Below, piece after piece: positions 46 to 56,297 of a stretch of DNA of 64,000 bases. The stretch's first letter is position 1. Every line of letters begins with the position of its first letter. Made by a program: the position numbers and the translations under genes. The stretch is from assembly GCA_034509925.1 (NCBI GenBank), contig CM067529.1:4969001-5033000 (forward strand), written 5' to 3'. Below the pieces are notes generated by a model that worked only from the letters and a program-made list of their open reading frames with translations, made no database searches and was not told the origin of the DNA. This stretch comes from Hirudinaria manillensis (lineage: Eukaryota > Annelida > Clitellata > Hirudinida > Hirudinidae).

Positions 46-2066
46 CTATTTAAATAAAATGCCGTGATAATGGCGTCTAACCTGAACGATCCATTCTGCT
101 TTTATTTCATTTGGAATTTCAGATTTCTTTACGAATGTGAGAGCATTAGGAAAAGCCGAACATTCGAGTACTATGAAACGTTTGATGGAATTACAAGGAC
201 CCATGCCCAGTAGGTTGGTGATTCTCGAATGTTTTCGGCGCTTCAGTAATTGAATCTCAGGAAGTTGTTCGACGCCACCGTTAACGTCGTTAAGTTCTTT
301 GAGGCAAACGGTCATCAAGTCCGTTTTAGGAGGACATTCTTCGTTAAATAAATCGTTATAAGTCAAATTAATTTTTTTTTTCACACGTTTTATTATGAGG
401 GCAATGCAAACATTGAGAAGGGTAATTTATTGGAGATAATTGCTTGTAATTCTTTTTATTTATTGTTACTATTCAACAAAACATATTGCTCACTTAAATG
501 TCCACTCCATAAGTCGTAAGTGGATTGACAGTATTTTGGCAATTTTTTCAATGAGGACAGCTCATTCCTTTCAATTATTCTCACTTCATTTCCTATTTGA
601 GCATTGTCTGGGTTTTCTGGAAAATTAAAATTGCTTTTAATGTCTTCATCAAGTTTATTTGGGTTAATAAAGTTTCATAAAGTTAAATAGTAACCTTGAT
701 TTTCACAATCTTCTTGTTCGGATGTGTATTCTGGTATTCCATCATCTGAAATTTCAAACTTATAGTTATGCACAATAAATTAATTTATATTAAATATACA
801 TTTATATTTGTTTCCTGTTAAGTAATCTCGTGTACCTTTATAGTCGTTCTGGTATTTAAACGAACTAAATAATAGTCGTTTATCGATTCATTTCTTTACA
901 TGTGATTTTAAAATCAGCAACGTTATTGTAAAAGCTTTAATGAGAATCGTTGTTTGCATTTTTAAAAATTAAATAAGAAATATGAAAGTAAAAGATGTCT
1001 CCATGAATTCATATCATCTGACATGGGTTCCGACAAAATGGTGTAATTGAATTATAAATACGTTGAGGATAGCAAAAAGAAAGTATTACAAGTAATAATA
1101 ATTTAGACGGACGGATAAATATAAATGGATAAAGAAATTGGTTAACATAATAATTTCCAAATCACCAACCGTTATCGTAGGTCATTGAATTGGTTACATC
1201 AGCGAGAATGTCCTCGCTTTTGAAAATGGCAGAAGCGGCAGTTTTTATCTGATGCTCGAGTATCCCGATGTGGTTTTTCAATTTCTCTATTTCCTCATTT
1301 TTAGATCTTAATTGGTTTTCCAAATCATTGATTTTAGTTTTTAATTCCCGCACAATCGGTGGAATTGAAGAATCATTGGCCACGTAAGTTGAAAGTTGCC
1401 TTTCATAGACACGCCTTTCAGAGTTAGGTTGACTTTCATAGACAGATCGCCTTTCATAAACAGGTTGCCTTTCATATACAGGTTGACTTTCACAGACAGG
1501 TTGACTTTCTCTGCGTTCTATAATCAAGTTCTCATAAGTGGAATTTAATAAAGACAATTACATGTAATATACATTATGAATTATACATATTAGATGTCGA
1601 TCAAGCTGAATAACATAAATTCGTTGTTAATGGCGACGGTTATCATTAACTTTCTATAAATATATAATTAAATGCTAATTAATTCAGTGAAATATATTAA
1701 TCAATAAATAAGCAGTAAATGTCTATCAATTGAGTTTAATTTAAAAAAAAACGTAAAGAATTACAGACCAATTTCTATTCGGTTGGCATTCTCGTCGAGT
1801 TCAATGGCAATCCACGGGTAACTGTCTTGCAACGCTTGCTTGAGGAAGGTGAAGGCACAAGGATTGGTTGTGGTGAAGAACTTGTGGAGCATTGTACGGC
1901 ATTTGTCCTGTCTCGTGCCGGCTGTTATTATATTCTCTCGTTCTTCTATTGTTACGACTTTCTTCTCTATTAGGTAGTCGAGGACGAATTTCGGATCAAC
2001 TTCATCAACAAACTTCTTGTAAATTCCCAGGAGACAATATTTCAATTTTTCGTTAAGTGCGTTCAT
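46..2066 (-). CDS. CARD-domain protein with Tyr-repeat and coiled coil
   Basis: Five exons fit with matching phases: 2066-1769, 1517-1170, 745-695, 616-494 and 338-46, about 370 residues. Exon 1 (residues 1-99) reads as a caspase recruitment domain: six-helix spacing, a central YLIEKKVVTIEERENI, then CRTMLHKFF and FLKQALQDSYPWI. Exon 2 starts with about six copies of a six-residue unit of type E-S/R-Q-P-V-Y. A coiled-coil segment of about 45 residues follows (ELKTKINDLENQLRSKNEEI). Exons 3 and 4 are acidic, and exon 5 is basic without a recognised fold. CARDs join homotypic complexes in apoptosis and innate signalling, and CARD plus coiled coil is the layout of CARD9/11-like adaptors. No caspase, NB-ARC or kinase domain is visible. 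The first donor is GTCTGT. The exon 5 acceptor (ACGAAG) has a poor pyrimidine tract and is the weakest join. An adaptor role is inferred. Confidence 0.6.
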
Positions 2067-3847
2067 GTCCTGAATTATTGAGGCATGAAATTAGCAAAAT
2101 CATATGATTACCTATCGTAATCGCTTGTTACGCCTGAATTATAGCTGTTTGGAAGTTATCCACTAAAAGTCAAAAAACTTTTAGCCGAATAATCATTTTG
2201 AATAAGAATTTTGAGAGGTTAATTAGACATAAATCTCTGCTAAATATGACGACGGATATCAAAGAAAAACTTCGCAATTTAAAGCTCCAAAACAGTATTT
2301 CACAACTGAGCTGATTTAAAAATTGAAGATCTTTTTGCAGATCTTAAAGCTCCAATAACCATCGTGTACTCAGTCGAAGCCGTGAGGGCATGATTAAACG
2401 GAGATATCAAGAAATCGAAAAGAAACCCAACCTTTTATTTTGAAAATTAACTACAAATTAATCCTAGAAAAACAAAGAGTGTGCTTCCTTTATTTCACAG
2501 GATACAATCACAAGATGTCTGAATTATTACTCACATTACAGACTTCAATTATATCTTATCCTGCTATTTATTAGTAACAGACATGACAGTGCTTGCAGTC
2601 AAGAGCCAAGCTAATTTTGGTAACAGCCCGACAATAAATACTGCCGCTAGTGTTACGTCATTACCGGTTAATGGCTTTATGGCGAAATTCCTCGTGTCCT
2701 TATAATTAAAGTTAACAAGGATGAGGATTTTTTTCATAAAGGATGGGAAAATCCCAGCTTCATTTATAGAGAGATTCATATAGATTATATTATGCAGGCT
2801 CTATTATACTATAATGCAGACTATGTGATAAGAGTAGAATTACTTGGTTAATTTGACCTACACAAGTGGGTTTAGTATATTTATAGTATATTTATTTATA
2901 TTTAGTTGAAGTTCTGACCGGTGCTCCATTTTTATGTTATCATTTCAGTTTCATTAAATTTTACATCACCATCAATTAACAATACTTTTACAGTACCCTA
3001 CTTGCCTCATAATTAGTTCAGCATGCAAATTCTTGTCTAATTCCTTCTCCTTCTCGAAGTGATTATAGCATCTAATACAATGTATATTAGAGGCTTTCGT
3101 TGAATGGACTGCCTTTTTACAACTCCATATTTATTTATTTCGAGCATTATTGAAAATTTGAAAGTAACTATTATTGAAAAAAATATATATAAATATCTAT
3201 TGTTTTCACCATTTATGGCTTAAATTTTATCACAAACTCTGTCACCATAATAGTTGTCAAAGAGAAACATGAAATAAGATGTGAGATTACAATTCTGATA
3301 TTAAGGAATTCAATCATGCACAACTCTATTATTAATGCAAAAATTTTGGAGATCCTCCGATAGGTTAACATGGTTGATAAATTTAACTTATGACCCCTCT
3401 CCTGATTTAAGAATTCTCTGCAAAACATTATTGTTGCGGATTTGCAACATTAACAAGAAAATATTATATATATAGTATGTTGGTATCTAATGCTAGATAA
3501 TATAAAAGGTACAGATTAATTTCAAATGTTTTGTTGGGACTCACTATGCTAATTTTATTAAGGCATTTTAATTTTAGGATGAAAAACGCTGCAAATAAAA
3601 ATAATGTTTGATAACATTCTTTATAGGAATTTATTTTGGTAATTTGACCAATAAAAACTTTAATAATTTTTTCTTATTTATCTTGATATAAAATTGTAAT
3701 AACGTAATATTAAATTTTTGGCATTTTTACTTTAATTAAAATAACTATTGTCCCAAATTTAATTAAATTTGTTGCAAAAGGTAGATTTAAAGTGCCACTC
3801 AAGGTTCACTTTTGTTTCTAACGAGATGAAGCTTTATTAATGAGAGC
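2067..3847. other. intergenic spacer between divergent genes
   Basis: This AT-rich stretch separates the start of the CARD gene (-) from the start of SLC25A38 (+) and should hold both promoters. One minus-strand reading frame at 2564-2700, preceded by a possible acceptor (AATTATAAG), encodes a hydrophobic stretch (VTLAAVFIVGLLPKLAWLL). I cannot connect it to other exons or to a family, so it is not called as a gene. Nothing else is evident. Confidence 0.5.
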
Positions 3848-25662: not shown

Positions 25663-27691
25663 TCACAAAGTGTCGCCAGGAATTGTCGTGGAGAGTAGAT
25701 TCCTAACGATGTTCATGAGGTTTTGGGCAGACGACATACCCAAGCCCAACTCCCTGGTCATTATGTCGAGGGTCAGCATTGGTAACTGGCTTCCGCTGAT
25801 CCCGTGCAGACGAAGTGCCTGAAAGAAATATTAAAGATCAACAAGAGAACGGTAACGACTCTTTTCGAGCAATCGTTTACTTTGGCGGTTTCAGCACATC
25901 CATCAATTTTCTCGACGTAGTCTGAAAGTTCGTCCGGACTCCACTTTAGGAAACTCAAAGCAGGCATAATTGGAGGTTGCAACAACAAGTCGCTGGCCAT
26001 CCATCCCAAATTACCGATAATGTTCGTCGGGAGAGATTTTTGGCTGGCTATGGAATCGTAGGGAGACTTTTTAACGGCTTCTATTCCGTTGTAGTTCTTA
26101 CAATAATCTCTGCAGCTTTCTTTGGGTTCGACATCGGTCGAATTGGCAGTTAATTTGGAGATGGTCGAACTTTTCATAAATTCAGAAAATACTGAGTGGT
26201 GGAGACTGCCCAGGAGGCCATTATCGTTTTCGGCGGCTTCGAAACCCGACCTGGGGTTGAGGGTTCTCCTAATTTTTCGGTTGCAACTCGATTTTGATAA
26301 GTCTAATGCCTTGATGTCAGAGGCGCCTTGCGAGTTCTGGTACTTGCGCTTCAGTTCCTGCGCTGCATCTTCCAGACAAACCTGCGACCAGAAAGGTGGA
26401 GCGGCTTCCGCTGGAAACTTACGCAGAGAAAGTAGGTCCGCACAATTTATTTTATTTGTCTTCAAAGGGTCGCAAGTCAGATTCTTATCGGGAGTCTTGT
26501 TGGACGAGGATTCATTTCTCATTCCTAAGGACACCTTCCTGCTGGTAACAGAGGAGTTTCCAGATCGCGATGGGGACGAGGTCTGCTGTACAAAGTTTAG
26601 CGGGTTGTTGAATGACGGAAGGAATGGGTAGGAAAACACGGATGAGTGATTTTGAAACATCATCGGAAACGAAGAGAAAAACAAGTTGGCATAATAAGCG
26701 CTGAGCCAACTCGATTCTAATGCACCAGTTTCTGCTTTTCTAGCGGAACCTGTACATAATGACGAGAATGAAGGAAGGGCATTAAGTTTCCATGAAATTA
26801 TATCAACTAATCCATCTAATCTCAAATTACCTTGAGAGGAAGGCCACATGTGAGATGACGACAAGTAAGTTTCAGCGCATCTTTTGCCCGCTTTGTGCGC
26901 TTGACCGTTGGATTTGGTCTCCATGAATATTCCGTTCGTTTTCCGGGAACACGTGACAATGGGTGTTTGTAATCTGCTCAGGTTTTTGTCATCGAAACAA
27001 CCTTCTTGCTTAAAATCCGAAGGGGCGCTTTGAAGATGGTATGTTGCTTTCTGAGGAGTGCTTTTCTTCCTTTTGTTCACCGTCTGATTTTCATCTTAAA
27101 TAGCACGTTTGGAAATAATTAATAAGAACATTTCGCAAGAAAATTTCATTCAAATGAACTCAAACTGAAAACTTCACTGTTTTTGTGGCATGCAAGAAAG
27201 CTCTTTGATTCCAAACATTGACGTTTCGTGTGGTCATAAATCAGGCTGGTTCTGGCACAAACATTTCCATCACCGGTGTCCTCGGAATCAAAAGATTTCT
27301 GAATTGAGATCGAGTGATGATCGTATATTTTATTGAATTCAATACTCGATTCTTCGTCGTTTTCAAACGCCAATGGTTGCGGCAGACGAGATTCATCCGA
27401 TGAGGGAAGCTCCGAATGAACATTACCTGATTGAGGATCAGGAATGGAGGAAATTCTGCTCGGACGAATTCCACTGCTTTTAAGATCTTCTGAAGGCTTT
27501 AGAAAGCATTGGTCATTGCCTGATTTGTCGACAGGTTCTTCGTTTGGTTTTGAATCCAACGCTGCGTTGTTGACTTTCTCGGAGGAGTGGAGAACCTGTG
27601 CGTCGCTGACATCGCTTCTGATCGACTGACGCGATTCAACGTTTTCCAGTATTGCCTCTTCAGTGACTCTTCTTTCGATTGTAACATCCAT
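25663..27691 (-). CDS. SAM-domain protein, SAMD7/11- or Polycomb-like
   Basis: Four exons fit in phase: 27691-27178, 27094-26831, 26749-25881 and 25818-25663, about 600 residues. Only the last 65-70 residues are recognisable, a SAM domain: WSPDELSDYVEKIDGCAETA, then HGISGSQLPMLT, then ELGLGMSSAQNLMNIV. The pattern GCAE...GI.G..LP.LT resembles SAMD11/SAMD7 and Polyhomeotic-type SAM domains, which polymerise or pair in chromatin silencing. The rest is Ser/Asn/Lys-rich and probably disordered. The intron at 26750-26830 is 81 bases, in frame and stop-free, so retention would add 27 residues. The start is the first ATG of the frame; a longer TTG-initiated frame was not used. A chromatin role is inferred only from the SAM type. 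Confidence 0.65.
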
Positions 27692-28237
27692 GCAGATGTA
27701 ATTGTCAGCGATGACTGCTCGAATATGTAATGCGACGGCGTTCAAGAATGACTAGTTATGATCTCGTTCAACTCATTAGACGTGTCTCAATTCTCAACTG
27801 CTTACAATGACGAGTTAATAAACGACTTTCGTTTTCATGACGCGTCCGATAATAATTCATTTGGGTCGACTAATTAATTTGGATCAACAACAACAACAAC
27901 GGCAACGACATCTGAGAAAGTGAAAATGGCTCTCGACGGCCACAAGAAAGAACATTCGAAGGGAAGAAGCAATCGTTGAAAATCTTGTCGCTTGACGCAG
28001 TGTATTTAACGCGTATAATTCCTCCCGTACATCGACCGCGTCATTGGATGCACGCTCAAGGAAACTGCAGAAGAGCGTGCTTATACATGGGGGATCAGAC
28101 AATTCTCTTGCAATATTATGTTCCCTCCAAGTTATAATTAGTATCCTGCCTTTCTCACTGTCCTCCATTCAATAGACATGCAGCAAACGACAAGGCGAGT
28201 GACTCAATGCGGTCTTAATAGTCGACTGACCTTCCAG

Positions 28238-30399: not shown

Positions 30400-32484
30400 T
30401 TAAAAGTTGTGTATCTCTTCGTGGCCGACATCGTTACCATGGAGATAATTGTAGATCGGAGGTTCAGAAGTATTGCTGGAAATCATTGAAATCCTTTTCT
30501 TCAGGGAGTCGAGTAGGTTTTTGTTCCGGGAATCAAATCTTTTGAAGACATCTTCGGGAGAGATGCTCACGATTTCATGGCGTTCCTCCATTTTCTTTCG
30601 TAACATTTCATTGAGAGCTGATTTGGTTCTTTCCAAGGATAAGAGTGGTCTTGCCTTGGAGTCTGTGCAGTCTTCTGATGCTGCTATTTCGCCTTTAGAC
30701 AAGCATAGATAAATCAGATGGAACATATTTTCTTTTTAAAGTTCAATGCTCACTTCCACGAGAAATCGTGCGTCCACCAGGTGTTTGGCAAATCATCTTT
30801 AATAATAAATGTGTAAACAATGAGATTAATCCATGGCTTAGTAATAAGCTATAAGTAATAAGTTAGTTAGACCTCGACATAATTAACTGGAAACCACCCT
30901 TCGTCGCTCCCGCAAATTCCTCTCCACCAACCACTTTCCTCCTTTTCCAGGACATCCACAACATCTCCCTCTCTTAATGCCAAATCATCAACTTCTTGAG
31001 GCTCAAAATCGTACAAAGCTAGAAAATATCATACATGTGGATATTTCTAAAGAGTTTCAAAGAGGCTCAAATCTCACCTCGGACTTTTAGCCTATTGCTG
31101 CGATATTCCCTCTGAGAAAAATCAATTCATATCCTAAGATCATTTGATCAAATAAGCAAAATAAATCAAATTAACGAACATGGATGCTCGCCTGTTCTTC
31201 ATTTTCGTGAGAAAGAAATGAGCAACTATTTTCTATGAAGATACCACCTAAAGGAACCTCGTTAACATTGTAACTGCGGTGTTGCAAATGATCTTCAGTA
31301 ATTCCTGATTCAATGCCTAGAACATTAATGGCAATTTTAATTATTAGAATACCCGCAAAAATTCAACTCATTCGAGTTGTATTACGAACCAATTAAGGTA
31401 GCGGTTACCAATTTTATCGATTATACCACGATGATTTAGATAAAATAAAATCGCACCTTCATTTTGGGATGTTCTGAAGTTTAAAATTATGCATTTACCG
31501 AATGACTTTAACAGGTGAAAATGAATATTGTTCATAACAAAAAAGAACCGATCCTTGCCAACCCGATTTAAATATGTTTTCAAGTCTTCGTGGAATGTTT
31601 GACGTGTCCCTGTTTCTCTCGTCATGATCCAAGTTTTTCAGTTTAGCGTCCGATTGCCGACGAACACCATATGGGATGACCTTCGATCTGTTTCCTAAAA
31701 TCTCTACACAATGCTCTCTTGGGGAATCTTCAAAAAATAATTCAATACCTCGATAATTGATGCTAACAAAGCACAATGTAATAGAAGCCAAAAGATAATA
31801 TTGAAGAAACCTTGAGACCCTGGCTGATGAGCTGCTATGACTTCTCTCTGGCAATATCCTTGTTTCTTTACAAATTAAAAAAAACTTGAAAGTTTGTTTT
31901 ATCGGTACACAATTCATAGCGCTTTCACAATCCAGCATGCGTGAATGGAATGCAGAAGAAAGTGAAAAAGCAACGAAATCAGATTAAAAGATAGCATTTT
32001 AGTCAGAGAGATAAAGAGAGTTTATTATTAACGGATGCAAACAAATGAAACTAAAAGTCAAATCGATCACACAACACCAGAATTTTATATGATGATAAAG
32101 TGCAAAATATCATGAATCATAACATTCACTCATTGCACTCACGCATGTAACCTAGTAAATTTTTACAGTGCTTCTATTGCAAATTACATGACATAAAACT
32201 TGCCAGTTTTTTCTTTCTTCTGGATATCACAAGAAAAAACAACAGGAACGTTATGACGGACAGAATTGCCAAAGCAATGGTTAATCCAATCGTGACATCA
32301 TTATTTGAATGTGTCACTTTGCATAGTCCGTCTGAAATGTATATTCACATAACAAAGTGGGCTTTCCTTTGCAAACGTTACTGCAGTACTTTTTAAATCA
32401 AAAGTAGAATGGCTACATACCAGTCTTGTTGTAACGTATCGCAGTCGAAGAGTTCAAATATTCCATTACAGTTTCAAAACGCAT
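30400..32484 (-). CDS. single-pass membrane protein with cytoplasmic SH3 domain
   Basis: Nine exons join in phase: 32484-32421, 32331-32200, 31865-31811, 31717-31563, 31316-31180, 31111-31078, 31018-30879, 30796-30754 and 30692-30400, about 350 residues. The short N-terminus (about 35 residues) has possible N-glycosylation sites NSS and NKT. One hydrophobic helix follows (IGLTIALAILSVITFLLFFL), then a stop-transfer SRRKKK, so the rest should be cytoplasmic. A Ser/Arg/His linker leads to an SH3 domain at about residues 190-240: ALYDFEPQEVDDLALREGD, ESGWWRGICG and EGWFPVNY, with all consensus aromatic positions present. The last 100 residues are charged, possibly helical (SALNEMLRKKMEERHE). I do not recognise the family. 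The layout recalls yeast Fus1 but without detectable relation. An upstream signal-peptide exon cannot be excluded, since AAAG precedes the ATG. Confidence 0.75.
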
Positions 32485-34448
<1,964 letters not shown>

Positions 34449-41862: not shown

Positions 41863-44800
41863 CGACGACGACGACGGCGATGATGATGATGATGATGATC
41901 GATGTTGTCTTGTCTTTGTCTTTGTTTTGCTTTCCAAATAACGGCCGATAATTTTCTTACCCAGGATTGGAAAGTTATTTCAGTTTTCTTGTTTTTTATT
42001 AATTTCTAGGAATTTCATTAATTTCGTATGCACCGCATCTCTAATTTTCTCTAGATTTGTCCGTAGATGGATTTTATATAATTTAAATTTAATCCTAAAT
42101 ATATAAATATTGACTCCAATAACAAGTCAAATCAAATCTGAACCGAAATCTGAGACGCGTCCACGTGTCCTAAAATCATGGCATTAAATTAAATTAATCA
42201 TTAAAAGTGGTAAATTCTTTTTTTATTCTTTCTTTATTCGTGTTTTTGTGCCAATTTGAATCTTTCAAATGTTTGAAGCTTGTAATTCAAACTTATATTA
42301 AATTTAAAGAATTTTTATGAACCTGGAGAGAAAAAAAGTCTTTTTTTTTTAAATAATATTTTCTTTATTATTATAAATTTATGTTTTTATTATCATCAAT
42401 TTGTGATTTTAATCTCAACAGTTTTCATGTGTTTTTATACCATTAAATCTCCAATCTCCAGAAAAATCTGATTGGTTTCAAATATTTACTCCACCACCTG
42501 AAGAAAACATCTGCAATTTGAAAAATTATCCAGCGAACGTTTATACATAAATAAGGAGTTTTTTTTTCCATTTTGTGATTTTATTCAGCGTAAATAATTT
42601 GTTCGTTACATTATTTGGTTCTTATAAACAATTGGTTATATTTTTTGTTTGATTACATTTCGTTGTTTATTATTTATTTATTTGTTTATATTAATTCCTT
42701 ATTCAACAAGTTTCAAATTCCCGACACGTTCAATCGAAGCAGGAGAGTTATTAATGCTTAAATTGAACTTAGCATCTCCAAGGATGCTAAGCAACCGCTG
42801 AACATGAATAATCAATTTCAACTCATTTATATTCATATTCCGATATAAAATCATTCAGAATTACTTCTTCAAATATGGAAAATCACGACTTTCATAAGCA
42901 AAAGCCATGAAAATAAAATCACTGAGCACACAAAAGAACGATTCCATTTTAACATCAAGAGTTGGTTTAACAAGCACGTAGCAACAATTAATGAAATAAA
43001 TCTATAGTTATTTCTTATAATAATTAACAATCGTTATTTCTTATATTAGCAGAACGGCCTTAGATAAATCGGATCCATTGAAAAACTATCCACTAATGAA
43101 TCTATTGTACATTGTACTTTTGTTAAAGAACAATTTTTATTTTATTAAATAAACATTTTAATGCATTTTGATGATAACGAGTGAAAATAACAGCTGGATT
43201 TGGAGCAGAAGATTGTAAAGATGCCGTGGAATGTACAAATAATTGCTCTTAAGCAGGAATTTCGTCGAAGGAATTTTCAATTGATAAAGTTCAATGTTCC
43301 CAAGTCTCGGAAAATATCTTTTATCTCACGTTTTAAGCAAAGCGCTTCTATTCATAGTCTAAAACTCCAGACTTCTACCACATTTACGACTGAAACTTGT
43401 CTAGGGAGTGTGGCGATAATAATTATGAATAATAATAATAATTATTATTATTATTATTATTATTAATTCCCTTTAGCCGATCTTTTGAGTGTCTTGACAG
43501 GATCTGAACGCACTTCTTGATCGATTCCCATTTGTATAGCGCTGAATATCGAACACGATACACAACGACTGTCACCATAACCACCGCATGCAAAAACTCT
43601 ACCGGTTCGGTCAATCTGCACGCCAATAACAACGATTATTACTTATAATCGCACGTGTTCATCCATCTTGTTTCCTCTCTTTGTTTGTTTTTTGAACGAT
43701 CGGAAAATGAAACTTCTAGGCTCTGGTGGTCATCTCCGTCCTCTTCATCCTCCTCTCAACGGTTTCGCTGTCGCTGAGCACCCTTCCATCGCTGAATTAC
43801 AACTCGACAGACAACGAACATCTGGTCAGGGTGAGTTCAACAGTGCTATTCGCTCAAATCTGTCAACGTTTTCTTTGAATTCCTCCCAGGTTGAAGCGGT
43901 CTGCATCGGTTGGTTCACTATCGAATACGTTCTTCGGTTCTGGTCCGCGCCAGAAAAATGGAAATTTTTCAAAGGTCCTCTGAACCTGATCGACCTCATG
44001 GCCATGTTGCCTTACTACATCGGCTTGTGCTTGAACGTCACCGACAACCACAGCCAAGAACAATTTCATAACGTTCGACGTCTCGTCCAAATTTTCAGGA
44101 TCATGAGAATCTTTCGTATTTTAAAATTGGCGCGCCACTCCATCGGTCTCCAGGCTCTCGGCTACACTCTCCACCAGAGTTACAAAGAACTCGGATTGCT
44201 AGTCAGCTTCATCTCGATCGGCATCATCATCTTCTCCAGCCTTGCTTATTTCGCCGAGAAAGATGCCAACGCTCAGATGTTCCAGAGCATTCCAGAGACG
44301 TTTTGGTGGGCAGCCATCACCATGACAACGGTTGGGTTCGGCGACGTTTATCCCAAAACTGCCTGGGGAAAACTTGTTGGGAGCGTCTGTTGTGTTTGCG
44401 GCGTGCTGGTGATAGCCATGCCAATACCCATCATCGTCAATAATTTTGCTGAATTTTACAAGGAACAGGTGAGGATATATGTAATATTATTATTAGTTCA
44501 TTATTAAGAGATAATGTCGGTACGTTCACGTAATAGTTCATATCATTAATACATATCTTAGCAAGTGCTTATTAAATATAAAATATCACTTTCTATTAGG
44601 TGGAACGAGAAAAGGCAAAAGCAAAAAGAACTCTTTTGGAAAATTGTCGGAAGGAAAACGAATTGCGATTTTTCAAGAACATCAGAGTGTGTATGAAATG
44701 ATTTAAAGTTTTGCCCGATATATGTTTTTGTTCATTTTGATTTTAAAATATATAAAGTTTTAATTTTCGTAGTGCGACGATTTTGTGGAGGTTCCGGATG

Positions 44801-51557: not shown

Positions 51558-53419
51558 TCATGTCATTTTATTATTTAATGCACAGCTTTTGCCATATGAA
51601 ACTTCTGAAAAATGACTGTAGGGATTTGGACTCTTGATTGCAAACCCACACAGCCAGCAGAAATGTGTATTACACTGACAACAGAACATCTTGTTACATC
51701 CACCAGATTTCTAAAAAGTGAGACAAATGAGAGATGTTAATATTAATGTTAATTCTAAAATTTCAACAATTACCTCAACAATTGCTTTACAATTTGGGCA
51801 TTTTTTACAGTTTGACTCTATCCATCTAACGGCTTCAAAAACAGCTCCGATTTCCTTTAACCTATTTTTTCCATGTATTTCTTCTAATTTTTTCTTGGCT
51901 TCTCCAGTTGCCTTCATATATTCATCCCTCACCCTATCAATGTCAGCTGCAAAATAAAAATGTTTAGTTCTTTAAAGTAAGACCCATAAATAACTCAATT
52001 TTATTTATCCAAAATTGAATGTCCCACAAACCAGTTCTAATTCTGCACTTTTCGACACCATGATAGCTTGACATGCAAAGGACGCAAAAAGCATAATGGC
52101 AAACTTGGCACATCGCAAGATTTTCTTGTTTGTCGATGATAACCGGACTGCCACAAGTAACCCTTGGGCAATATTTGATGTCGCTCATGACATCCAATGT
52201 GCTTTTCAGAAGAAGCCTATCATATCTTTCAAATTGTTCTTCATTAACCAGTCCCTTGATCTGAAGTAGTAAACCAAGCTTTATTAAATCCAGCTGATAT
52301 TATTCATTGGAGGTTTAGTTAGTTGAATCTGTCAAAGGACAGATCTCCAACAAGGCATCATACAAACCACATTTGGATATATCTGGGAATCACATTTTTC
52401 AACAAGGCAATTGAGAAAATTGACATTTCCTTCTGTAATGTGAACTGAGAGAAATCCCAACAAACATTCCTCGCAAAACAGGTGGCCACACTTTCCCAAC
52501 TGAACACATTCCGCTCCTGGTTTCATGGCAAAACAAATAGGGCATTCGTGAAAATCCTTATCAAACACTTCTTTCTCTCTGTTAGAAAAATATATATAAA
52601 ATAACGAATCAAATTATATAACCTTTGTAAATTTATCAAACCTTTGTAAAGTGTATTGTGTGAGAATCCTTAATTTATCTGGTGTCACTCTGAGAGGAAA
52701 TGTAATGTTCAGATATTCAAGAACTTCAGCTTGCAAAAAACCAATCCAGGTAAAGAGAATAACATTGTTGCAATTCTCTATCCACAGCTCTGTCAGTTTA
52801 TTTTTCAAAATTTCAAGCTGAAAATATAACCATTGCATGTAAATTATGCTAAAAGTAATGATTTCATTCAAAAAAGTTCTTGTAAATTATCCTTCAAAAT
52901 TAAATCTCATATTCATTAATTTCAAATTTAACTGATTAAAAGCCAGATTTTAAAATACTTTTTTGTTCCTGCAGCAGTTCATATCAATAACACAAATAGA
53001 AAAACGTTATTGAGATTTTGTCATATGTTTAAGCAATCGAATGGGAATTAAATAATGCTTTGAATTATAAAATACCTGGTCAGAAGTTAACCAGTAACAT
53101 GAGAGTTCACAAATTGGGGGATCCAAAGAAGGATAATCAGAAGGTAATTGAAAATTTAAAACAATTGGAGAAAGGTGCCTCAGTTGATGTATATCACCTG
53201 AACATAAAGTAAACAAATTGAATTTTCCCAAAACCAAAATGCACATAAAAAATGAAACACACCATCACAAATAACATCATGAGTGTTGGAGTTGTCTTGA
53301 GGATTAATAAATACCGTCCCTCTATAGGGTTTTTCTGAAATGTCACAGACAAAAACTTCATCTCCATAAATACTCTGAAGAGCCAATATTTCATCTGCTT
53401 GATCATTTTCATCTGACAT
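51558..53419 (-). CDS. RNF14: RNF14-like RBR E3 ubiquitin ligase, copy A
   Basis: Seven exons, approximately 53419-53264, 53203-53078, 52820-52642, 52579-52366, 52262-52033, 51950-51777 and 51712-51558, give about 410 residues (human RNF14 474). RBR ligases take ubiquitin from an E2 onto a RING2 Cys and then onto substrate; RNF14 acts in transcription and ribosome-linked quality control. An N-terminal RWD domain (residues 1-150) starts MSDENDQADEILALQSIYGD and has LPSDYPSLDPP. RING1 is CPICFAMKPGAEC...CGHLFCEECL. The IBR includes YCPRVTCGSPV and CQVCHYAFCVLC. RING2 is CPNCKAIVE then GGCNKMFCCQC and FCWLC, with the catalytic Cys in GGC. The tail has NPYSHF as in RNF14. All zinc ligands are intact, so this copy should be functional. 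Confidence 0.9.
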
Positions 53420-54119
53420 GTTCTGAAAATATTTTATATATTTTACGAAGATCAGAATGAAATCGATACTAGTACACGAAAAGGTAAAACCTCCATCGTT
53501 TCTACTCGTCCTAATCTAAACCCTTGGACCTGTTTAGTATTAATGAAACTTAACTCCACCCAACGTACTGCCAACCAATGTTGACATGATGCATTACGTA
53601 ATTATTCTGATTGTTCTTTAAATTTAATTCTTAATGAATAATTGTAAAAAAAATTTAAAACAAATTTTTACGATACGTTTGCAGTAATCTGCCCGGAAAA
53701 TTACATATAGACCGAGTGTCAAATATCAACGTATGGAGGTTTTCAGGCATCCAAGGGCTACAACTGAGCTTAGAACTCTATCGAATGCTTATATTGTGAC
53801 ATTTAGCCCATAATAGGGAGACTATCTCCACGAATTACCTATAGTTCTTTTCCCAACTTGTTTGGTTTTTTTTAAAAATAAATTCGTGTTATAAAGCAAC
53901 ACGCGGCCACGCTTTTAAGCTGAGACCTAAGCTGACTAGATCCAATTGGAACCAATGTAATTATCCCTCCCACCAATTTCGAACATCACCCCATTTCAAA
54001 TTTCACTAATATTTAATATTATATAATATATATAATACTTTTCTTCTACTTGATCAAAAGTCATGATCAACCATTAAATGCCTATAAAATTTAGCGCACT
54101 AAACATTACTGATATCATT

Positions 54120-55961
54120 TTATTCAAATAATACACAGCCATTGCCATTTTCTGGAAAATGACTGTAGGGATTTCGACTCTTGATTACAATCCCACACAA
54201 CCAACAGAAATATGTATTACACTGACGACAGAACATCTTGTTACATCCACTAGATTTCTGAAAGTGACAAATGAGATATATTAATGATTAATGTTAATTC
54301 TAAAATTCCAACATTTACCTCAATACTTGTTTTACAATTTGGGCATTCTTTACAGTTTGACTTTATCCAATTTACAGTTTCAAAATTAGCTACAATTTCC
54401 TTTAACCTCTTTTTTCCATATATTTCTTCTAATTTTTTCTTGGCTTCTCCAGTTGCCTTCATATATTCACCCCTCAGCCTATCAATGTCAGCTGCAACAT
54501 AAAAAGGTTTAGTTCTTTAAAGTAAGACCCATAAATAACTCAATTTTATTTATCCAAACTTGGTCCCACAAACCAGTTCTAATTCTGCACTTTTCGACAC
54601 CATGATAGCTTAACATGCAAATGACGCAAAAAGCGTAATGGCAAACTTGGCACATCGCAAGATTTTCTTGTTTGTCGATGATAACCGGACTGCCGCAAGT
54701 AACCCTTGGGCAATATTTGATGTCGCTCATGACATCCAATGTGCTTTTCAGAAGAAGCCTATCATATCTTTCAAATTGTTCTTCATTAACCAGTCCCTTG
54801 ATCTGAAGTAATAAACCAAGCTTTATTAAATCCAGCTGATATTATTCATTGGAGGTTTAGTTAGTTGAATCTGTCAAAGGACAGATCTCCAACAAGTCAT
54901 CATACAAACCACATTTGGATATATCTGGGAATCACATTTTTCAACGAGGCAATTGAGGACGTTAACATTTCCATCTGTAATGTGAACTGAGAGAAATCCC
55001 AATAAACATTCCTTGCAAAACAGGTGGCCACACTTTCCTAACTGGAGACATTCTGTTCCTGGCTTCATGGCAAAACAAATAGGGCATTCGTGAAAATCCT
55101 TATTAAACACTTCTTCCTCTCTGTTAGAAAAATATATATAAAATAAAGAATCAAATTATATAACCTTTGTAAATGTATCAAACCTTTGTAAAGTGTATTG
55201 TGTGAGAATCCTTAATTTATCTGGTGTCACTCTGAGAGGAAATGTAATGTTCAGATATTCAAGAACTTCAGCTTGCAAAAAACCAATCCAGGTAAAGAGA
55301 ATAACATTGTTGCAATTCTCTATCCACTGCTCTGTCAGTTTATTTTTCAAAATTTCAAGCTGAAAATATAACCATTGCATGTAAATTATGCTAAAAGTAA
55401 TGATTTCATTCAAAAAAGTTCTTGTAAATTCTCCTTCAAAATTAAATCTCATATTCATTAATTTCAAATTTAACTGATTAAAAGCCAGATTTTAAAATAC
55501 TTTTTTGTTCCTGCAGCAGTTCATATCAATAACACAAATAGAAAAACGTTATTGAGATTTTGTCATATGTTTAAGCAATCGAATGGGAATTAAATAATGC
55601 TTTGAATTATAAAATACCTGGTCAGACGTTAACCAGTAACATGAGAGTTCACAAATTGGGGGATCCAAAGAAGGGTAATCAGAAGGTAATTGAAAATTTA
55701 AAACAATTGGAGAAAGGTGCCTCAGTTGATGTATATCACCTGAACATAAAGTAAACAAATTGAATTTTCCCAAAACCAAAATGCACATAAAAAATGAAAC
55801 ACACCATCACAAATAACATCATGAGTGTTGGAGTTGTCTTGAGGATTAATAAATACCGTCCCTCTATAGGGTTTTTCTGAAATGTCACAGACAAAAACTT
55901 CATCTCCATAAATACTCTGAAGAGCCAATATTTCATCTGCTTGATCATTTTCATCTGACAT
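54120..55961 (-). CDS. RNF14: RNF14-like RBR E3 ubiquitin ligase, copy B
   Basis: This is the upstream tandem copy, with the same seven-exon layout as copy A, shifted by about 2.54 kb and running from 55961 to a stop at 54120. The RWD exons are identical in protein, and RING1 differs at a few residues (CPICFAMKPGTECLQLGKCG). The IBR differs at CVICMLSYHG versus CVLCMSSYHG. Divergence rises sharply towards the 3' end: the exon before RING2 and the tail (SSGCNKMFCRQC, FCWLCGIVIKSRNPYSHF) have many replacements, and the last residues differ completely (ENGNGCVLFE). The catalytic Cys (SGC) and zinc ligands remain, so the copy is probably active. Both copies carry their own 5' flank, so both may be transcribed. 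Confidence 0.88.
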
Positions 55962-56297
55962 GTTCTGAAAATATTTTATATATTTTACGAAGATCAGAAT
56001 GAAATCGATACTAGTACACGAAAAGGTAAAACCTTGAAAGCCTCCATCGTTTCTACTCGTCCTAACCTAAACCCAGTTATTCCGTAAGACCTGTTTAGTA
56101 TTAATGAGGCTTAACTCCGCCCAACGTACTGCCAATTAATGTTGACATGTTGCAAAATGTAATTATGCAATATGTTCTTTAATTTTAATTTTTAATGAAT
56201 AATTGTAAAATTTTAAAACAAATTTTTACGATAGGTTTGGCCGCTAATCTGCCAGGAAAATTACAAATAGACCGAATGTCAAATATCAACGTGTGGG

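What the first reader, a model, noticed from the sequence alone, without database searches (positions are those of the whole stretch)
30400..32484. Unassigned single-pass membrane protein with a cytoplasmic SH3 domain
Nine exons join in phase to give about 350 residues: a short glycosylatable N-terminus, one transmembrane helix with a basic stop-transfer, a Ser/Arg linker, a complete SH3 domain (ALYDFEP, GWWRGICG, GWFPVNY) and a charged tail. Animal SH3 proteins with a transmembrane helix and almost no ectodomain are rare, and I cannot name a family with this order. By analogy with fungal Fus1/Sho1, it could recruit Pro-rich partners to a membrane patch. The exon joins are seen in sequence; the role is inference.
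Basis: partly seen in the sequence, partly recalled or inferred. Interest (0 to 1): 0.75.

Follow-up and report, generated by a model that had tools for sequence, protein, structure and literature searches.

The report
Small membrane-anchored SH3 adaptor gene
An animal gene that most likely encodes a small protein held in the membrane by one helix, with an SH3 docking module facing the cell interior; its parts are ordinary, the combination matches no named family that could be checked, and whether all exons belong to one transcript is unproven.

Summary
Minus strand, 32484 to 30400. A complete SH3 domain (Pfam SH3_1, 1.1e-16), a coding tail exon and a strongly hydrophobic helix followed by RRKKK are there. 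The start exon plus helix exon is hard to get by chance: the only such arrangement in 263 kb on both strands, 0 of 300 resamples (thresholds set after seeing the locus). But the helix-to-SH3 join is unproven: the same weak scoring puts a helix-free SH3 protein starting at 31202 about 20 nats higher, and a model with its own first exon 3 nats higher. A two-gene reading stays at 25%. No Pfam family beyond SH3 passes its cut-off; the own-genome searches found no paralogue of the ends and a separate PEX13. The host is probably a lophotrochozoan, perhaps a leech; no relatives are held, so conservation is untested. Likely role: a membrane docking adaptor with a helical tail and an overlapping PPxY/YxxPhi motif. 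New variant of a known kind, moderate interest.

The parts
32421..32484 (-). Exon 1: ATG, short N-terminal segment with sequons NSS and NKT; no signal peptide seen
   Evidence: Donor CTG|GTATGT 5.39, 73rd percentile of 220 reference introns; in-frame TAA upstream with four codons between
32188..32331 (-). Exon 2: one transmembrane helix (TIALAILSVITFLLFFLVI) and basic RRKKK; 3' end at 32188 preferred, uncertain
   Evidence: Acceptor 3.94 (45th percentile), donor at 32187 2.89 (19th percentile); only such ATG-exon/helix-exon pair in 263 kb both strands, 0 of 300 resamples; coding score 71st percentile of 417 open noncoding segments
31563..31748 (-). Exon 3 (my model): charged linker in frame 1; 5' end may instead be 31727 or 31717
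   Evidence: 162-codon open frame, 1 of 2000 shuffles; coding-like codon-position composition here, not upstream in the same frame; acceptor 2.45 (15th percentile), donor CGG|GTTGGC 4.82 (58th); coding score 87th percentile of 194 open noncoding segments
31180..31316 (-). Exon 4: linker (IESGITEDHLQ...EEQASIH)
   Evidence: Acceptor 2.86 and donor 3.05, 22nd and 23rd percentile; coding score 84th percentile of open noncoding segments
31078..31111 (-). Exon 5: REYRSNRLKVR, leads into the first SH3 strand
   Evidence: Acceptor 4.67 (59th percentile), donor 7.11 (96th)
30873..31018 (-). Exon 6: SH3 domain (ALYDFEP ... GWWRGICG ... GWFPVNYVE)
   Evidence: Pfam SH3_1 1.1e-16, SH3_9 3.5e-13; PDB best Grb2 7.5e-21; donor only 12th percentile
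30754..30796 (-). Exon 7: 43 nt, bridges the SH3 exon to the tail in phase
   Evidence: Donor GAA|GTGAGC 4.74 (56th percentile), acceptor 2.49 (15th); chosen by the gene finder and, with the SH3 exon forced; not in the free run nor
30400..30692 (-). Exon 8: charged tail, two predicted helices, then PPIYNYL; stop codon
   Evidence: Coding score +9.5 in frame 1 against -26.7 and -19.7 in the others; helices at residues 17-40 and 45-71 of a single-sequence model, mean pLDDT 69.0, pTM 0.27
33092..34448 (+). Divergent neighbour: ELAV-like three-RRM gene (label recalled), bounds the locus upstream
   Evidence: Gene finder exons, partly mis-set; sequence reading

Best explanation
One gene of eight exons encodes a 348-residue single-pass membrane protein that enters the membrane N-terminus out without a cleaved signal (type III, reverse signal-anchor). 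It exposes about 34 residues with two glycosylation sequons outside, and keeps a charged linker, one canonical SH3 domain and a helical tail inside. It most likely acts as a constitutive membrane docking site: the SH3 domain recruits Pro-rich partners, the tail helices pair or bind a partner, and the overlapping PPxY/YxxL motif in EPPIYNYL lets Nedd4-type ligases or AP-2 remove it. Shown: the SH3 domain, a hydrophobic helix exon, a coding tail, and in-phase joins. Inferred: one transcript, topology, and every functional step.
For: SH3 domain. Start exon plus helix exon unique in 263 kb and 0 of 300 resamples. All seven introns GT-AG and in phase. RRKKK after the helix and no other run of four basic residues. 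No PxxP in the protein, so the SH3 ligand would be in trans; PPIY and YNYL in the tail. Tail helices. Exon 3 composition (R1 0.61, GC1 0.46) resembles the SH3 exon (0.69, 0.62), exon 4 (0.60, 0.51) and tail (0.62, 0.45); the stretch upstream in the same frame does not (0.49, 0.33).
Against: No transcript or relative was available. My self-trained gene finder never chose this model: it called no gene here, took the SH3 exon in another frame (free), or began a short gene at 31202 with a trimmed SH3 exon. With SH3 forced (+60) it scored 61.4 without exon 2; with exon 2 also forced (+120) 114.4, about 7 nats worse, and it cut exon 2 to 14 bases, without the helix. Scored as fixed models: eight exons -22.3, short cytosolic model from 31202 -1.8, long first exon from 31938 -19.4. 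Exons 2, 3 and 4 lie at the 71st to 91st percentile of open noncoding segments and below all 44 or 48 self-predicted coding exons of their size; the certain SH3 exon (94.5th) is below all 48 too, so this test is weak. Weak sites: donors of exons 2 and 6 (19th, 12th percentile), acceptors of exons 3 and 7 (15th each). In-phase joining has a one in three chance and many sites are on offer.
Confidence: 0.56

Rival explanations
1. Two genes. Exons 1-2 encode a complete 73-residue membrane peptide that ends at the TAG at 32176-32174; a separate cytosolic SH3 adaptor begins downstream, for example at ATG 31202 (178 residues).
For: Exon 2 reads into a stop ten codons after RRKKK; AATAAA lies at 32026-32021; the scoring prefers a helix-free SH3 model by about 7 nats in the search and about 20 nats as fixed models; the finder chose ATG 31202.
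Against: Exons 3 and 4 look coding by codon-position composition, which the model from 31202 leaves unexplained apart from the last 23 bases of exon 4. Each extra short exon costs about 11 nats in this scoring by construction, and it also misses the certain SH3 exon when free. AATAAA is common in AT-rich sequence.
Confidence: 0.25
2. The frame-1 ORF from ATG 31938 is the first exon, giving a 342-residue SH3 protein with one weak N-terminal hydrophobic segment and no link to exons 1-2.
For: 162 open codons; six exons only; donor 31562 4.82; scores -19.4, 3 nats above the eight-exon model.
Against: 31983-31749 has intron-like codon-position composition and its hydrophobic peak is only 1.32; coding score of 31865-31563 in frame 1 is -8.5.
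Confidence: 0.09
3. One reading: the helix exon joins a Ser/Arg exon (31865-31811), then short exons in frames 0 and 2, then the SH3 part.
For: It closes in phase without an inner stop and gives 355 residues; donor 31498 CG|GTAAAT is fair (33rd percentile) and the acceptor could be 31609 (6th percentile).
Against: Donor after the helix exon 0.26, below all 220 reference donors; acceptor 31615 0.35; frame-2 exon at the 43rd percentile of open noncoding segments; total -44.1 or -42.9; the 162-codon ORF would be a coincidence (1 of 2000 shuffles).
Confidence: 0.05

Closest known systems
PEX13
   Same: Animal integral membrane protein with a transmembrane region and a C-terminal SH3 domain (PMC11024197, passages)
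   Different: No Peroxin-13_N match here; this genome has a separate Peroxin-13_N locus at C4:7835551-7836161
Sho1 / Fus1 (fungi)
   Same: Membrane anchor followed by a cytoplasmic SH3 domain that docks signalling partners (Fus1 recalled)
   Different: Sho1 has four helices (PMC4411306, start of abstract in search listing); no sequence comparison with either was made
MIA / TANGO1 family
   Same: SH3 fold in proteins of the secretory route
   Different: MIA is extracellular (PMC10453029, passages); TANGO1's luminal SH3 is recalled; here the SH3 is predicted to be cytoplasmic with canonical ligand residues
Transmembrane adaptor proteins such as LAT and NTAL (recalled)
   Same: Tiny ectodomain, one helix, long cytoplasmic scaffold without enzyme
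   Different: Those offer phosphotyrosines to SH2/SH3 adaptors; this one would carry the SH3 itself
Grb2-type adaptor SH3 domains
   Same: Best PDB sequence matches
   Different: No SH2 match, single SH3, membrane helix

Membership tests
SH3 domain proteins | SH3 domain above the curated cut-off with the ligand-pocket residues | tested here: met
   60.6 bits against a cut-off of 22.9; ALYDF, WW, P and NY present in the translation (their roles recalled)
PEX13 | Peroxin-13_N domain (PF04088) | tested here: not met
   Not reported in the Pfam scan of two model proteins up to E 10; found at a different locus
PEX13 | Location in the peroxisomal membrane | not testable with these tools
   Needs imaging
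Sho1 | Four transmembrane helices | tested here: not met
   One hydrophobic segment with windows at or above 1.6 in the eight-exon model
MIA/TANGO1 | SH3 on the luminal or extracellular side | tested here: inconclusive
   Charge pattern (RRKKK directly after the helix) predicts a cytoplasmic SH3; topology was not measured
Grb2-type adaptors | SH2 domain between SH3 domains | tested here: not met
   Only SH3 families above the cut-off; four sub-threshold matches over the two models, none SH2
Single-pass membrane proteins | One helix encoded in the same transcript as the SH3 domain | tested here: inconclusive
   Helix exon strong, join in phase, but not supported by the gene finder

The most novel reading that the evidence does not exclude
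A lineage-specific (annelid or wider lophotrochozoan) family of minimal membrane adaptors that combine a reverse signal-anchor helix, a canonical cytoplasmic SH3 domain, a helical-hairpin tail and an overlapping PPxY/YxxPhi removal signal: an animal layout that works like fungal Fus1 but arose separately.
Probability: 0.33. Interest if true: 0.45.

Novelty: new variant of a known kind. Interest (0 to 1): 0.33.

Why it matters
Animal SH3 adaptors are usually soluble and brought to membranes by receptors (general knowledge). One that is built into the membrane, with almost nothing outside, would be a ready-made docking patch and an independent counterpart of the fungal layout. It also shows a practical point: a motif-rich exon chain read by eye can have the right ends and a doubtful middle.

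Tried and rejected
Self-trained gene finder on 263 kb with the locus cut out of the training sequence: useful for scoring sites, too weak to call this gene. In one search the splice matrices drifted; they were held to a recalled generic matrix. It mis-set part of the ELAV-like neighbour in both. The starting matrices were meant as insect-like, before the host proved not to be an insect. In one search four of the twenty single-site lines (exon 2 donor, second exon-5 acceptor, exon 6 donor, exon 9 donor of that script) were one base off; I used the full site list of the same call instead, and for the donor at 32199. In one search the long-first-exon model was entered one base off; redid it.

Paralogues: tail, N-terminal half and SH3 in the own genome. 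Apart from the locus itself the next tail match is at E 0.67 and the next N-terminal match at 0.146. For SH3, 35 of 64 scored candidates pass E 0.01, this one included; the best other is 53% identical, and its locus (L005) reads like a CAP/vinexin gene (recalled label).

Viral contigs for the tail: 11 pattern matches, none a relative. PDB with tail and linker: two matches each, best E 2 and 0.95. SH3 exon folded alone without its first strand: poor model (pLDDT 62.7). Neither it nor the tail model (pTM 0.27) was sent to a fold search.

Papers: eight searches. Searches listed 15 of 108, 15 of 729, 15 of 25, 15 of 29, 5 of 6, 1 of 1 and 10 of 10 papers; from titles and starts of abstracts, PEX13 was the only animal membrane protein with a cytosolic-side SH3 that I recognised. 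One search was for the host. The listings are partial and only open-licence text is held, so this is no proof of absence from print.

Host: insect assumed at first, rejected: no match to a five-unit TTAGG array, many TTAGGG matches, including arrays near both ends of contig C1 and several inside it (capped list). In COX1, 3 of 6 AGR codons face Ser in the best PDB match and none faces Arg or Gly. Tunicate considered: no GH6 match (the control rang nowhere, so not conclusive) and no exact match to a recalled Ciona leader. Leech is a guess from size and contig lengths (PMC10087013, passages: 13 pseudo-chromosomes and 157.5 Mb for H. manillensis) and a recalled COX1 look. One search used a wrongly recalled Pfam accession (moricin) and says nothing.

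Full report
What is there. The locus is on the minus strand, between 32484 and 30400, head to head with an ELAV-like gene that starts near 33092 on the plus strand. The SH3 exon (31018-30873) is certain: Pfam SH3_1 with 60.6 bits against a cut-off of 22.9, and 102 distinct PDB sequences at E 1e-8 or better, 60 of them shown, Grb2 first. The tail exon (30692-30400) is coding in one frame: +9.5 nats against -26.7 and -19.7. A 43-nt exon at 30796-30754 brings the two into phase; the gene finder chose it and, with the SH3 exon forced.

The membrane helix. Exon 1 (32484-32421) joins exon 2 (from 32331) with a donor at the 73rd and an acceptor at the 45th percentile of 220 introns predicted in this genome. 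Exon 2 encodes a 19-residue stretch with hydropathy 2.91, followed by RRKKK. I scanned 263 kb on both strands for an ATG exon joined to a helix exon with a basic run, at three threshold sets. The strict and middle sets gave one acceptor each, which is this locus (it passes both), and the loosest gave six. In 300 order-2 resamples of the region none had a hit at any set. The thresholds were chosen after seeing the locus, so the figure is a guide, not a p-value.

The middle. I rebuilt a 355-residue version from the wording; it is my reconstruction. Its weak points are a donor of 0.26 after the helix exon, below all 220 reference donors, an acceptor at 31615 (0.35) or 31609 (1.81, 6th percentile), and a frame-2 exon at the 43rd percentile of open noncoding segments. 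The reference introns were picked with score cut-offs, so they hold no very weak sites by construction. Against this version stands a frame-1 ORF of 162 codons (31983-31495). In 2000 dinucleotide shuffles of the region the longest ORF averaged 77 codons, and one shuffle reached 162. Only the 3' part of this ORF has coding-like composition: purine at codon position 1 is 0.61 for 31748-31563 and 0.49 for 31983-31749, against 0.69 in the SH3 exon and 0.62 in the tail. An exon 31748-31563, with alternative starts at 31727 and 31717, joins the helix exon upstream and exon 31316-31180 downstream in phase. The resulting eight-exon gene has seven introns of 59 to 439 nt, each GT-AG, and translates to 348 residues.

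Results against this reading. My gene finder, trained on 263 kb with the locus cut out, never chose the full model. It called no gene here, took the SH3 exon in another frame (free) or began a short gene at 31202 with a trimmed SH3 exon. With the SH3 exon forced it scored about 7 nats better without exon 2 than with it, and it then cut exon 2 to 14 bases, without the helix. As fixed models, a short cytosolic protein from 31202 stands at -1.8, about 20 nats above the eight-exon model, and a six-exon model that starts inside the frame-1 ORF at 31938 stands at -19.4, 3 nats above it. Each extra exon costs about 11 nats in this scoring. Exons 2, 3 and 4 fall at the 71st to 91st percentile of open noncoding segments and below all 44 or 48 self-predicted coding exons of their size class. 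The certain SH3 exon is below all 48 too (94.5th percentile), so the test has little power for this gene. A two-gene reading is possible: exon 2 runs into a TAG at 32176-32174, with an AATAAA at 32026-32021.

Likely workings. I see no signal peptide, the basic run follows the helix, and two of the four sequons lie in the short N-terminus, so N-out/C-in is the likely topology. The model protein has no PxxP motif, so the SH3 domain should bind partners in trans. The tail has two predicted longer helices (residues 17-40 and 45-71 of the exon; single-sequence model, pLDDT 69.0, pTM 0.27) and holds EPPIYNYL, where a PPxY and a YxxPhi motif overlap. From established knowledge (recalled), such motifs bind Nedd4-type WW domains and AP-2. 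A membrane docking adaptor with its own turnover signal is therefore the simplest mechanism; all binding steps are inference.

Compared with what is known. PEX13 also carries a transmembrane region and a C-terminal SH3 domain (PMC11024197, passages), but no Peroxin-13_N match was reported for this protein and the genome has a separate locus for it. Sho1 has four helices (PMC4411306, start of abstract in the search listing). MIA is an extracellular SH3 protein (PMC10453029, passages). That compilation counts 298 SH3 domains in 221 human proteins; I read passages, not its tables. Pfam reports nothing beyond SH3 above its cut-offs (four sub-threshold matches over two models, best E 0.035); NCBIfam, a prokaryote library, reports nothing. 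In seven literature searches, whose listings were mostly partial, PEX13 was the only animal protein I recognised with a related layout.

Host. The window comes from a 148.4-Mb genome in 23 contigs. It has TTAGGG arrays (928 forward and 1877 reverse matches, among them arrays near both ends of contig C1) and no match to a TTAGG array. A 15,581-base contig, taken as mitochondrial, holds COX1 with nine in-frame TGA codons, and 3 of its 6 AGR codons face Ser in the best PDB match, none Arg or Gly. A lophotrochozoan is likely and a leech is a guess. No relative is held, so conservation, the one decisive test, could not be run.

Verdict. A new variant of a known kind, moderate interest, waiting on one transcript.

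Noticed in passing
51711-53515 and 54250-56066, minus strand: Two closely similar neighbouring copies (reading frames compared by eye) of a gene with an IBR domain (second copy tested; RWD and RING parts recalled by look), apparently a recent tandem duplication of about 2.5 kb.
   Followed up: partly
44331-44444, plus strand: Rfam potassium-channel RNA-editing element RF00485, 63.1 bits, inside a coding frame of a Shab/Kv2-like channel gene (label recalled).
   Followed up: no
33092-34448, plus strand: Divergent ELAV-like three-RRM gene (label recalled); starts about 600 bases from the SH3 gene, so the two may share a promoter.
   Followed up: no
1761-2090, minus strand: CARD domain frame (Pfam CARD 1.6e-11), possibly the start of an Apaf-1-like or other apoptosis gene (guess).
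   Followed up: no
G000:C9:3026446-3027786, C23:31-1371 and C3:11667942-11668139: Three COX1 matches, two with the same score (408.4 bits): C23 looks mitochondrial by size, so C9 holds a nuclear copy or an assembly duplication; C3 holds a fragment.
   Followed up: no
25773-27751, minus strand: Long Ser/Asn-rich reading frames (440 and 201 aa) predicted as one protein of about 552 residues; the 440-aa frame matches no Pfam family at E 0.01.
   Followed up: partly
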